Assembly (NCBI RefSeq): GCF_900109925.1
Contig: NZ_FOBW01000001.1
Location: 372,001 to 436,000, forward strand
Length of the DNA stretch: 64,000 bases
Source: Mesobacillus persicus
Lineage (GTDB): Bacteria; Bacillota; Bacilli; Bacillales; Cytobacillaceae
Direction: 5' to 3'
In this document: positions 2,326-20,531 of the stretch, one piece after another
Layout: each line of letters starts with the position of its first letter
Position numbering within the stretch: the first letter of the stretch is position 1
The notes under the pieces: model-generated
What the model was told of the DNA's origin: nothing
What the model saw: the letters and a program-made list of their open reading frames with translations, nothing else
Database searches by the model: none
Position numbers and translations under genes: made by a program

Positions 2326-2512
2326 GCCTCTTACTCCCTTCAACAAAATTTACATCCATCATATCACCATTTTTATTGAAGTGGAAAAATTATGTAAGAG
2401 CGTTTCTCGTGTGAATGGTAACAAAAAAACAATGCTATCCTCTAGGGATTGCATTGCCTGTTCCGTTTGATATTGGGTTGATTAGAAGTCAGACATTGTT
2501 GAAACAAAAAAA

Positions 2513-2592
2513 GGACTTGGTGGGAGTCGAACCCACAAGATGTCCAACAATTCATAAATTGTTGACTGCTCTGACCATTGAGCTACAAGTCC
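2513..2592 (-). tRNA. tRNA-like gene with an over-long anticodon arm
   Basis: Reading the minus strand: a perfect 7-bp acceptor stem (GGACTTG/CAAGTCC), T8 A9, a 4-bp D stem GCTC/GAGC with an AATGGTCA loop, a 5-nt variable loop, and a T arm GTGGG-TTCGACT-CCCAC. All of these are canonical. The anticodon arm is 25 nt instead of 17. It folds as GTC+AACAATT paired with AATTGTT+GAC, with one bulged G and a 4-nt TATG loop, so no anticodon can be assigned. CCA is not encoded, and a T7 run follows directly. Either a structurally aberrant tRNA or a tRNA-derived RNA. Confidence 0.6.
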
Positions 2593-2644
2593 TTACTCAT
2601 ATTATTTCCACATTTGTCATTTCCATGCAGGTAAAATGAATTAT

Positions 2645-4588: not shown

Positions 4589-5464
4589 TTAACGATCACA
4601 ATCTACGGTAGTTAAGAAGTCACCGACCACGTGTAAATATTCTGCCTCATCCTCTATATATGGCATATGAGCACTGTTTTCAAAAACATGGACTCTTGAA
4701 TTTGGAGTGAGGCTACTGTAATACGCCGTTGTTTCTGGAGTTGCTTCATCATACCGACCACAAGCATATAGAGTCGGGCAGGTAATTTCGTGTAATTGGG
4801 AGGTACAGTCAAATGTCTTTAAGTTACCTGTAACAGTAAATTCTGACGGTCCCCACATTATGTTGTATACTTCAGGATTTTTTAGATGGGCACCTTGTTT
4901 TAAATGTTCAGGATAAGGATCTAAGCGGCAAACAAAGTGTTGATTAAACACCAAGGTTGCGTCCTTATATTCCTGCGTGTCAGTTGTTCCATTTTGTTCA
5001 CTTCTGATAATGATTTCTTGAATTTCTTTTGGTAGTTTTTTGAGATTCCTGCGTTGATCTTGCTCCCATAACGGAGCACTGAGGCATGAGCTAGAAAAGA
5101 CAACGCTTTTCACACCTTTTGGCTTCGTTAGGCAATAAGCAGCCGCTAAGGTTGTTCCCCAGGAATGGCCGAGAATATGAACCTCCTCTAAGTTTAACGC
5201 TTTGCGGATATCCGCTAATTCTTGGACAAACCGGTCGATGTTCCATAACGAGGGATCAGTAGGTCGGTCGGATCGTCCACACCCTAGTTGATCATAGAGA
5301 ATAACTGGTCGGTCAACTGCTAGCTCCTTTAGTCCTTGCAAGGTATAGCAGGAAGAACCAGGACCTCCATGCAAAATAATAAGTGGGGTGCCCTCCGCCT
5401 GTTTATTATGTAATTGATACCAAACCTTCCCACCAGGAACTTCAATATATCCTTCTTCGTGCAT
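4589..5464 (-). CDS. Alpha/beta hydrolase, proline iminopeptidase-type (S33)
   Basis: Peptidase S33-like hydrolase: oxyanion-hole LHGGPG near residue 35, nucleophile elbow GHSWGT near residue 100, a late DEAT acid region, and catalytic His in NSAHMPY. These proteins release N-terminal residues or hydrolyse small amides and esters in the cytoplasm. The longest frame begins at a TTG (5476) that overlaps its own AGGAG. The ATG at 5464 is preferred, giving 291 aa. Confidence 0.85.
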   Translation of the reverse strand: MHEEGYIEVPGGKVWYQLHNKQAEGTPLIILHGGPGSSCYTLQGLKELAVDRPVILYDQLGCGRSDRPTDPSLWNIDRFVQELADIRKALNLEEVHILGHSWGTTLAAAYCLTKPKGVKSVVFSSSCLSAPLWEQDQRRNLKKLPKEIQEIIIRSEQNGTTDTQEYKDATLVFNQHFVCRLDPYPEHLKQGAHLKNPEVYNIMWGPSEFTVTGNLKTFDCTSQLHEITCPTLYACGRYDEATPETTAYYSSLTPNSRVHVFENSAHMPYIEDEAEYLHVVGDFLTTVDCDR

Positions 5465-5510
5465 ACTCTTCGCCAACTCCTATTGTCTTTTGTTTTTTTA
5501 CAGTTAAATA

Positions 5511-18504: not shown

Positions 18505-19026
18505 ATGAAAGAATTGCAATATCCGATTGGTCCATTTCAACCGCAACAGGAACTGTCGAATACATTTATTGAAAGTTGTATAAGAGAGATTGAAGAGGCT
18601 CCTTCTCTATTTAGAAAGGCAGTAGAGGATTTAAGTGACAAACAACTCGATACTCCCTACCGCCCTGGCGGATGGACGATTCGTCAAGTTGTTCATCATC
18701 TTGCGGATAGCCATATGAATAGCTTTATTCGCTTGAAATTAGCTCTTACCGAGGATAATCCAACGATCAAACCCTACTTTGAAGAGAAATGGGCAAATTT
18801 AGCTGATTCCAAACAATCGATTGAATCATCGTTAACTCTTTTAGAAGGATTGCATTCAAGATGGGCTTATTTATTGAAATCGTTGAAGCCTGCAGATTTG
18901 GAAAAGACTTTCTATCACCCTGAAACAGGTCCAGTGACATTGGCTATGAATATCAGCTTGTACGCTTGGCACAGTCGCCATCATCTTTCGCACATCACTA
19001 GGCTTCGTGAACGGATGGAATGGTAA
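18505..19026 (+). CDS. DinB-fold thiol transferase (YfiT/BstA-like)
   Basis: 173 aa, colinear with B. subtilis YfiT, a DinB/YfiT-like metalloprotein later named bacillithiol transferase BstA. Metal ligands are visible as HHLADSH (about residues 66-72) and WHSRHHLSH near the C-terminus. Expected to conjugate bacillithiol to electrophiles in the cytoplasm. ATG at 18505 follows TGGGGGAACTGAAA. It is followed by a strong terminator. Confidence 0.85.
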
Positions 19027-19140: not shown

Positions 19141-19602
19141 CTATGTTAACTTTTCAAGCTCATTAAAAACGGCTTCATAATCTTCCTTTTGATCCGCTTT
19201 GAACGAAGTGTTTGTGTAGGTAATCACACCTTCTTTGTTCACTACAAAAACCGAGCGAACCGCGGTTCCACCTTTTTCATTAAACACCTGGTAGTTTTTC
19301 ATTGTTTGCTTATCCCAATCAGATAACAGTGGGTATGGCAATGTTCCCATGCTTGCTTCAAAAACTCGGTGTGAATGAATATGGTCAGCGCTGACCGCTA
19401 AAACATCGGCGTTTAATTGTTCAAACTTCTTATAGTCCTCTTTCCAAGAGGCAATTTCTTTAATTCAACCTGGGGTAAAATCCATCCCATAAAAGGCAAC
19501 AACAATATTTTTACTTCCTCGATAATCTGCTAAAGAAATCTTCTCTTGCTTCGTTGCCGTCAAGGAAAAATCCGGCGCCTGATCACCAATCTTCAAAGAC
19601 AC
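19141..19602 (-). CDS. Probable selenocysteine-containing peroxiredoxin (AhpC/TSA family, PrxU-like)
   Basis: 153 codons from GTG (19602, after AAGGAGG) to TAG, interrupted only by TGA at codon 46 (19465-19467). The context is AFYGMDFTPG-TGA-IKEIASWKEDY, so TGA sits exactly at the peroxidatic Cys of the thioredoxin-fold peroxiredoxin motif (TPGC). Upstream is IGDQAPDFSL; downstream FEQLNADVLAVSAD and LPYPLLSD are intact, with no frameshift. No other Cys exists, so the enzyme would be 1-Sec. A SECIS-like hairpin lies in the right place. It would reduce peroxides. The alternative is a nonsense mutation exactly at the catalytic codon. Confidence 0.82.
19437..19451 (-). promoter_or_regulatory. 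Candidate bacterial SECIS hairpin
   Basis: On the minus strand CCTCTT-GGA-AAGAGG forms a 6-bp stem with a GGA apical loop. It starts 13 nt after the TGA codon, so the first loop G is the 20th base after it. Known bacterial SECIS elements place a G-containing small loop about 16-37 nt after UGA. It lies inside the coding sequence, as expected for bacteria. Confidence 0.72.
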
Positions 19603-19684
19603 TCTAAACGATACCTCCTTTTATCATACCAACCCCATTATTCCCCAAAATTCAAAAAGTAAGCAGCGAGATGGAAATAAAAGT

Positions 19685-19716: not shown

Positions 19717-20337
19717 TTAGTTATTCGGTACAAAGATTTTTTCGAATTGGTAGTCTCCGTCGAGTTCGTTAATTTTAAGAACGGATGCATTTTCAATTGG
19801 CTTAAAGCCGGCTAATTCTTCTATTGGCCAGTTCATGAGATAGGCAAGAAGCATTTGCATAAAGGCAGCGTGAGTCACTACGACGATATTATCGTAACGA
19901 CCTTGCTTCTTCACCCTTTCCACGACTGCAGTCATAAACATTGTCGCGCGAAGATACACATCGGCCAGCGACTCCCCGTTCTGGAACCGAAAATAAAACT
20001 GTCCTGCTGCTTTAAATTCTTTTTTCGATTCAGGGGTCCGATTGGTATGGTCATATAGATTTCCCAATTCCCACTCTCGAATCAGTGGATTTTGATGAAA
20101 AGGGACTTGTCCAGGTAGCTGAGAGTGGACGGCCTCTGCTGTCTGCATCGTCCGCAAATAAGGAGAACTGTATAGCACTGACGTTCCTTCCACGATTGTT
20201 TTCATAAATTCCCCGGTTTGTTTGACCTGCTTTTGACCGAGAGCAGTCAAATTATGTTGGGAATCATGTGTATGAGCCATGACTGTACGGTCAACATTAT
20301 GCTCAGCCTCGCCATGACGAATCACATAAATATTCAA
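19717..20337 (-). CDS. Histidine phosphatase family protein (phosphoglycerate mutase-like)
   Basis: Cytoplasmic phosphohydrolase of the branch-1 histidine phosphatase superfamily. Phospho-acceptor RHGEAEHN is at residues 6-13, with LYSSPYLRTMQTAE and a second catalytic His in VVTHAAFMQ. 206 aa. TTG at 20337, 5 nt after GGAGG, gives MNIYVIRHGE, the usual family start; the GTG 12 nt upstream lacks proper spacing. Substrate unknown. Confidence 0.88.
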   Translation of the reverse strand: MNIYVIRHGEAEHNVDRTVMAHTHDSQHNLTALGQKQVKQTGEFMKTIVEGTSVLYSSPYLRTMQTAEAVHSQLPGQVPFHQNPLIREWELGNLYDHTNRTPESKKEFKAAGQFYFRFQNGESLADVYLRATMFMTAVVERVKKQGRYDNIVVVTHAAFMQMLLAYLMNWPIEELAGFKPIENASVLKINELDGDYQFEKIFVPNN

Positions 20338-20531
20338 TGTTTCCTCCACCCCTTGTTGTGATTTATGTATTTATAAAAATGGACACCCATGGTTAGGAGT
20401 GTCTATAAGTTAAAAATCGGTAAGAAAGATCTTATGTAATACTTTAACAAGTATTTTTAAGTTGGTAAAGTAAATTATATCAATATTCAGAATATGAGTT
20501 TGCAGGTTATGCTGGAGTGAATGGGTGGGTT

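What the first reader, a model, noticed from the sequence alone, without database searches (positions are those of the whole stretch)
19141..19602. Peroxiredoxin with TGA at the catalytic cysteine: candidate selenoprotein
The frame from GTG 19602 to TAG 19141 is intact except for one TGA at codon 46. It falls exactly where the peroxidatic Cys belongs (DFTPG-TGA-IKEI). A CCTCTT-GGA-AAGAGG hairpin begins 13 nt later, matching bacterial SECIS spacing and loop. The protein has no other Cys, so it would be a 1-Sec peroxiredoxin. Conserved sequence and frame on both sides of the TGA argue against decay. Standard annotation would call the 210-bp 3' part a short ORF or the whole a pseudogene.
Basis: partly seen in the sequence, partly recalled or inferred. 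Interest (0 to 1): 0.93.

Follow-up and report, generated by a model that had tools for sequence, protein, structure and literature searches.

The report
Selenocysteine peroxiredoxin gene in Bacillales
This gene looks broken by a stop codon, but the stop is almost certainly read as the rare amino acid selenocysteine, giving a probable peroxide-removing enzyme of a kind already known in bacteria and shared by many relatives of Bacillus.

Summary
The finding holds. Window 19602-19141 (-) is one frame of 153 aa with a single TGA at codon 46, where homologues have the peroxidatic Cys. The genome holds selA, selB, a UCA-anticodon tRNA-Sec and a selD with its own in-frame TGA. In 193 genomes of the family all 68 matches at E<=1e-25 carry exactly one TGA. 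Across the order, 48 of 49 genomes with a TGA form have selA, against 181 of 397 overall. The hairpin after the TGA keeps its six pairs in 68 of 69 distinct clade sequences, with compensatory changes in two. pN/pS is about 0.15 on both sides of the TGA. The model resembles 1-Cys AhpE. Likely role: a 1-Sec peroxiredoxin reduced by an outside thiol; substrate and reductant are inferred. It is a new member of a known kind (TxxU Sec-peroxiredoxins), and a RefSeq record already runs one relative's CDS through its TGA. Against: the hairpin is weak energetically, the proline of PxxxTxxU is Gly here, one relative (L084) is truncated, and one genome (G563) keeps the gene without detectable selA, selB or tRNA-Sec.

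The parts
19141..19602 (-). Sec-peroxiredoxin gene (GTG to TAG), 153 aa with Sec at residue 46
   Evidence: AhpC-TSA E 7.5e-36
19465..19467 (-). In-frame TGA, codon 46, at the peroxidatic Cys position (DFTPG-U-IKEI)
   Evidence: TGA in 103 and Cys in 28 of 131 homologous loci kept
19437..19451 (-). SECIS-like hairpin CCTCTT-GGA-AAGAGG, 6 bp, 3-nt loop, 19 nt from TGA to loop
   Evidence: pair counts; synonymous freeze; energy
19614..19620 (-). Ribosome-binding site AAGGAGG, 11 nt before the GTG
   Evidence: read
18505..19026 (+). Neighbour, convergent: YfiT family bacillithiol transferase (context only)
   Evidence: NF009807 249.2 bits, cut-off 160
19717..20349 (-). Neighbour upstream, same strand: histidine phosphatase family protein (context only)
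   Evidence: PF00300 E 9.6e-35

Best explanation
The gene encodes a selenoprotein. The ribosome reads UGA at codon 46 as selenocysteine, directed by the hairpin 13 nt downstream and by SelB with tRNA-Sec (machinery shown to be present; insertion itself inferred). The product is a small thioredoxin-fold peroxiredoxin close to 1-Cys AhpE in predicted shape. Its selenolate, in a TPGU site next to the conserved Thr43 and Arg116, would attack a hydroperoxide and become a selenenic acid. As the protein has no other Cys, an outside thiol (thioredoxin, or bacillithiol with bacilliredoxin) would have to reduce it back. Peroxidase activity, substrate and reductant are inferred from the family, not shown.
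For: Complete machinery in the genome: tRNA-Sec 63.5 bits over cut-off with anticodon TCA, selB 366.9 bits, selA 576.2, selD 395.3 with its own in-frame TGA. Family: 57 of 193 genomes match at E<=1e-25, all 68 rows with exactly one TGA; those 57 all lie among the 172 selA+ genomes, none among the 21 without (p 6e-4). Order sample: 48 of 49 genomes with a TGA form have selA, 181 of 397 overall (p 2.6e-17); the genomes found by Cys-form matches show no such link (30 of 56 have selA). Hairpin: 371 of 372 cells paired in 62 distinct rows, covariation 0.053 against 0.032 (0 of 500 shuffles), 65-67.5% paired when slid. Synonymous codons at 49, 52, 54 and 55 at 0.19 bits, the only ones under 0.3, against a median of 1.27 downstream and 1.63 upstream. 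pN/pS 0.17 before and 0.15 after the TGA, 36 pairs. Tree: the TGA clade is one side of a branch, 100/99, with no Cys row inside. Model pLDDT 95.9, pTM 0.91; best PDB match AhpE, TM 0.92, 32% identity. Thr43, Pro44, residue 46 and Arg116 invariant in 33 aligned proteins.
Against: Hairpin energy is weak (-4.9 kcal/mol for the hairpin alone), while the published bacterial model asks for -7.5 or lower (PMC13188914, passages); the own genome's SelD, SecB and GrdB-like hairpins reach it. The two compensatory rows (L157, L161) belong to one genus, so probably one event, and 'further pair types' is no higher than in shuffles. The invariant GGA loop follows partly from the conserved Trp-Lys it encodes, and Trp-Lys was also my script's criterion for the clade. 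dS is saturated in 16 and 26 of 36 pairs. One clade member (L084) ends 28-30 codons early, apparently by a frameshift. One genome with the gene (G563) shows no selA, selB or tRNA-Sec over cut-off. The conserved Pro of PxxxTxxU is Gly in this protein. No expression or selenium data.
Confidence: 0.96

Rival explanations
1. Pseudogene: a once Cys-containing peroxiredoxin killed by a Cys-to-TGA mutation.
For: A single-base change turns TGT or TGC into TGA; relatives without Sec machinery have Cys here. One relative (L084) is truncated, and G563 keeps the gene without detectable Sec machinery.
Against: The same TGA in all 72 clade loci and all 68 family rows, constraint after the TGA as strong as before it, a conserved hairpin, and restriction to selA+ genomes.
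Confidence: 0.02
2. The TGA is a real stop or a leaky read-through site with another amino acid; the two halves act as separate short proteins or the gene is regulated by read-through.
For: The 3' part has an ATG start of its own giving 69 aa. Trp-type read-through of TGA is recalled from Bacilli in general, not tested here.
Against: Peroxiredoxin fold needs both halves; homologues have Cys at the site, not Trp; the TGA form tracks selA; a hairpin of bacterial SECIS geometry follows the TGA.
Confidence: 0.02
3. A selenoprotein, but not a peroxidase: for example a thiol oxidoreductase, redox sensor or selenium store with a peroxiredoxin fold.
For: No resolving Cys, Gly in place of the usual Pro, no activity data; no conserved gene neighbourhood to point to a function.
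Against: Thr43 and Arg116 of the peroxiredoxin site are invariant in the 33 aligned proteins; nearest fold is 1-Cys AhpE.
Confidence: 0.15

Closest known systems
Sec-containing peroxiredoxin, TxxU type (COG1225 / PF00578)
   Same: PF00578 domain; Sec at the peroxidatic position in a T-x-x-U motif (TPGU); listed as an established prokaryotic selenoprotein family in PMC9312934 and PMC13188914 (passages).
   Different: The listed example proteins could not be compared here. This clade is AhpE-like and in this protein has Gly for the Pro of PxxxTxxU.
PrxU of Eubacterium acidaminophilum (NF040737)
   Same: Best NCBIfam match by E-value (2.9e-22), Sec-peroxiredoxin.
   Different: 79.5 bits against a cut-off of 270: not a member. 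That PrxU is a longer, AhpC-like protein is recalled; the profile has 233 positions.
AhpE, 1-Cys peroxiredoxin (PDB 5c04, 4x0x, 1xxu)
   Same: Best fold match: TM 0.92, 32% identity, equal length, one catalytic residue, an Arg at 116 in both (4xih title names R116A).
   Different: Cys there, Sec here. Reduction of AhpE by mycothiol and mycoredoxin is recalled; these Bacillales would have bacillithiol instead (also recalled; PMC4360819 abstract in a listing).
Second Sec-peroxiredoxin of the same genome (SecB, G000:C28:485509-485979)
   Same: 37% identity, TGA at the matching codon, PF00578.
   Different: Own clade (98/96), motif WTPVUGAQMPSYE, hairpin with another sequence, neighbour of a GrdB-like selenoprotein ORF.

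Membership tests
Bacterial selenoprotein | In-frame UGA inside a conserved coding frame | tested here: met
Bacterial selenoprotein | selA, selB, selC, selD in the genome | tested here: met
Bacterial selenoprotein | Cys at the same position in homologues | tested here: met
   40 of 41 distant loci Cys, one TGA (L108); 28 of 131 loci kept
Bacterial selenoprotein | Occurrence tied to Sec machinery | tested here: met
   57 of 57 in the family, 48 of 49 in the order sample; exception G563
Bacterial selenoprotein | Selenium in the protein | not testable with these tools
   needs 75Se labelling or mass spectrometry
Bacterial SECIS model (as given in PMC13188914, passage) | Loop 3-9 nt, stem 4-16 bp, G in the first two loop positions, 16-37 nt from UGA to loop | tested here: met
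   3 nt, 6 bp, GG, 19 nt
Bacterial SECIS model (as given in PMC13188914, passage) | Minimum free energy of -7.5 kcal/mol or lower | tested here: inconclusive
   -4.9 hairpin alone, -6.2 over 41 nt, -8.2 over 59 nt; relative L157 reaches -9.5
Sec-peroxiredoxin TxxU (PF00578) | PF00578 domain with T-x-x-U | tested here: met
   PF00578 123.2 bits, cut-off 26; TPGU
Sec-peroxiredoxin TxxU (PF00578) | Full PxxxTxxU motif | tested here: not met
   GMDFTPGU in this protein, PLDFTPGU in deeper clade members; the shorter TxxU is the listed criterion
Sec-peroxiredoxin TxxU (PF00578) | Peroxidase activity | not testable with these tools
   needs enzyme assay
PrxU (NF040737) | Score over the curated cut-off | tested here: not met
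   79.5 against 270 bits
AhpE-type 1-Cys peroxiredoxin | AhpE fold, no resolving Cys | tested here: met
   fold TM 0.92, no other Cys in this protein; 17 of 69 clade proteins have another Cys
AhpE-type 1-Cys peroxiredoxin | Low-molecular-weight thiol dependent recycling | not testable with these tools
   -

The most novel reading that the evidence does not exclude
A distinct, Sec-only subfamily of AhpE-like 1-Sec peroxiredoxins spread through Bacillales, in part by mobile DNA, that has kept selenocysteine and never gone back to Cys in the genomes seen, works with bacillithiol, and uses an unusually short and nearly frozen SECIS hairpin. If so, it runs against the view that aerobic bacteria rarely keep selenoproteins.
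Probability: 0.3. Interest if true: 0.5.

Novelty: new member of a known kind. Interest (0 to 1): 0.38.

Why it matters
A gene that a plain ORF caller splits in two is a working selenoprotein gene, shared by 50 of 193 genomes of the family (rows at 72% identity or more). It gives a small catalytic Sec protein and a natural comparison (Sec clade against Cys relatives) for asking why some Bacillales keep selenium in a peroxidase. A 2026 review says that aerobic bacteria rarely retain selenoproteins (PMC13188914, passage); a 2016 survey gave 40.4% of Sec users as aerobic (PMC5029168, passage). That these Bacillales are mostly aerobic is recalled, not tested. The kind itself is known, hence a middling score.

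Tried and rejected
Gene neighbourhood: ORFs of 90 aa or more within about 3-4 kb in 40 loci (L046-L084 and the window) were clustered; none of the 14 largest clusters printed has a window member, and the largest reach 11 of 40 loci, so no conserved partner.

Upstream motif: a two-box motif (GTCTAA, 15 nt, G-A-A-TAC) was fitted to 58 non-redundant of 69 upstream regions at 12.5 bits per sequence, against 9.0-9.5 in six shuffles; the shuffles had fewer restarts and iterations (8 and 25 against 20 and 40), which favours the real set, and the window's own region scores only 8.8. The pattern searched in 7 genomes gave 4 matches, 2 of them before this gene, while the reversed control gave 10. I therefore do not assign a sigma factor or regulon; a resemblance to a forespore promoter came to mind from recall only.

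Thermodynamics as proof of the SECIS: rejected as too weak.

Pseudogene and TGA read as another amino acid: see rivals.

Literature: eight searches. In their listings I saw no paper on a Sec-peroxiredoxin of Bacillales in particular; only open-licence PMC papers are searched. Seen as passages: PMC9312934 (also its section 5), PMC1794560, PMC11076775, PMC5029168, PMC5330540, PMC13188914, PMC1088965, PMC1914089; in PMC12013277 the six terms had no occurrence. PMC1794560 counts 3 selenoproteins in Firmicutes/Bacillales in 2006, so Sec use in the order was known.

Three of 72 clade rows were duplicates. The tree used 27 of 69 clade rows, 15 of 30 SecB rows, 28 Cys rows and L108. Order-level searches scored at most 9 and 4 candidates per genome, so misses are possible; that both calls drew the same 397 genomes is assumed from their matching handles. 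The structure alignment used 32 clade proteins and SecB.

Full report
What is there. On the minus strand, 19602 to 19141, a frame opens with GTG 11 nt after AAGGAGG and closes with TAG; it is broken only by TGA at codon 46. Read through, it is 153 aa without Cys elsewhere and matches AhpC-TSA (PF00578, E 7.5e-36) and Redoxin across the TGA. A plain ORF list shows only the last 69 codons.

Machinery. The window lies in contig C28 of a 4.64-Mb genome. tRNA-Sec is at C23:176667-176759 (63.5 bits, cut-off 47; anticodon TCA). The tRNA-Sec search also rings in genomes without Sec use, so only matches over cut-off count. selB is at C15:140648-142510 (366.9 bits, cut-off 242.25), selA at C28:285913-287298 (576.2 bits), selD at C28:288762-289688 (395.3 bits). 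SelD has its own in-frame TGA (SSKAGUGCK).

Relatives. In 193 genomes of the family, 57 match at E<=1e-25, in 68 rows, every one with exactly one TGA. By identity these are 50 genomes with the window's type (72% or more; one of them, G091, has a second copy at 50%) and 17 with a paralogue at 35-41%; 10 have both. The genome-contig scan kept the best 80 of 91 loci. At codon 46, L016-L084 all have TGA (69 of 69; the unnamed loci L016-L045 largely repeat named genomes), L085-L125 have TGT or TGC in 40 of 41, and L108 (Anaerolineales) has TGA. The nearest named relative is Mesobacillus maritimus (83%).

Order-wide. Of 397 genomes sampled, 101 match at E<=1e-22. 49 of these have a TGA form, 32 of them of the window's type. 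Of the 49, 48 have selA, while 181 of 397 have it overall (Fisher p 2.6e-17). Related species are not independent, so the p-value is too small. Of 56 genomes with a Cys-form match, 30 have selA.

The exception. G563 (99% complete) has the gene with its TGA and hairpin intact, but no selA match, no tRNA-Sec over cut-off (its best loci are tRNA-Ser) and no selB over cut-off (188.2 bits, as the non-SelB match of its sister). The sister G355 has all three. Recent loss of the machinery or an assembly gap would both explain it.

Hairpin. The clade has 72 loci, 69 distinct. The stem keeps all six pairs in 68 of 69; L072 lacks the outermost. On 62 distinct 42-nt rows, 371 of 372 cells pair; two pairs have changes on both sides, in L157 and L161 (C-G to U-A and U-A to C-G), which share one genus and so are probably one event; covariation is 0.053 against 0.032 in shuffles (0 of 500), and slid structures pair at 65-67.5%. 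Two of the five measures are less decisive: pairs with both sides changed were reached by 3 of 500 shuffles (and by the slide of -1), and further pair types by 500 of 500. The GGA loop is invariant, but Trp-Lys encodes it and my script defined the clade by Trp-Lys, so that is not independent; all other TGA rows were the 30 SecB rows and L108.

Nucleotide constraint. Synonymous entropy of codons 49, 52, 54 and 55 is 0.19 bits, and the third base of codon 51 is C in nearly all rows although the amino acid varies; no other scored codon is under 0.3 bits (83 downstream, 37 upstream scored; medians 1.27 and 1.63). Codon 49 lies between TGA and stem. pN/pS is 0.17 upstream and 0.15 downstream (36 pairs; dS saturated in many). 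One member, L084, ends 28-30 codons early and matches only residues 2-111, so single copies do decay.

Energy. -4.9 kcal/mol for the hairpin, -6.2 and -8.2 for 41 and 59 nt. The published model asks for -7.5 or lower (PMC13188914, passage), so a strict search might miss this element; its geometry fits the other limits.

Phylogeny and shape. In a tree of 71 rows the clade is one side of a branch (100/99) with no Cys row in it, and SecB is another (98/96). AlphaFold2 gives pLDDT 95.9 and pTM 0.91; the nearest solved structures are AhpE (TM 0.92, 32%), then Bcp-type and 2-Cys peroxiredoxins at close scores. Gly6, Thr43, Pro44, residue 46, Arg116 and others are invariant in 33 proteins.

How it works. 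Shown: gene structure, machinery, conservation. Inferred: UGA is decoded as Sec; the selenolate reduces a hydroperoxide; an outside thiol completes the cycle. A convergent neighbour encodes a bacillithiol transferase, but the neighbourhood is not conserved, so this is only a hint.

What is known. TxxU Sec-peroxiredoxins are an established selenoprotein family (PMC9312934 and PMC13188914, passages; PMC1088965, passages), counted in 78 organisms in 2016 (PMC5029168, passage). The protein is not over the cut-off of any NCBIfam model listed. A Planococcus lenghuensis plasmid carries a 51.6% relative with TGA, and its RefSeq-derived CDS runs through the TGA with a protein accession; the table does not show translation exceptions, so that it is annotated as Sec is inferred. 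Hence: new member of a known kind, real, of moderate interest.

Noticed in passing
L126:5507-6007 and 4763-5470 (-), own genome C28, outside the window: A second Sec-peroxiredoxin (SecB) followed at once by a GrdB/PrdB-like ORF with its own TGA (GRDB over Pfam cut-off, PrdB model under its cut-off): a likely two-selenoprotein operon.
   Followed up: partly
L069, about 1.9 kb downstream of the gene: Another frame with TGA at the peroxidatic position of an AhpC-like peroxiredoxin (NFTFVUPTEL), so a third type of Sec-peroxiredoxin in Neobacillus notoginsengisoli.
   Followed up: no
L171 (genome G563): Intact TGA gene and hairpin in a genome with no selA, selB or tRNA-Sec over cut-off: a possible orphan selenoprotein gene after loss of the machinery.
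   Followed up: partly
L207:2483-2968 (Planococcus lenghuensis plasmid): Plasmid-borne TGA relative at 51.6% identity, annotated as a CDS through the TGA.
   Followed up: partly
window 5514, 9730, 12557, 17002, 19687, 24488, 31177, 41607, 41635: Nine copies of the 13-bp palindrome GGTGCC(A/T)GGCACC; one lies 85 nt upstream of the gene.
   Followed up: no
upstream of clade genes, about 35-55 nt before the start: Two-box motif with a 15-nt spacer in many relatives, weak in the window; no regulon found.
   Followed up: partly
L001:737-838 (-): Guanidine-I riboswitch with small multidrug resistance-type ORFs (type recalled) close to the tRNA-Sec gene.
   Followed up: no
window 2511-2593 (-): ARAGORN reports a tRNA of unknown type with a four-base anticodon, probably spurious.
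   Followed up: no
L108: An Anaerolineales contig with a TGA-form peroxiredoxin (LAWTPVUTSQIPS) outside both Bacillales clades.
   Followed up: no
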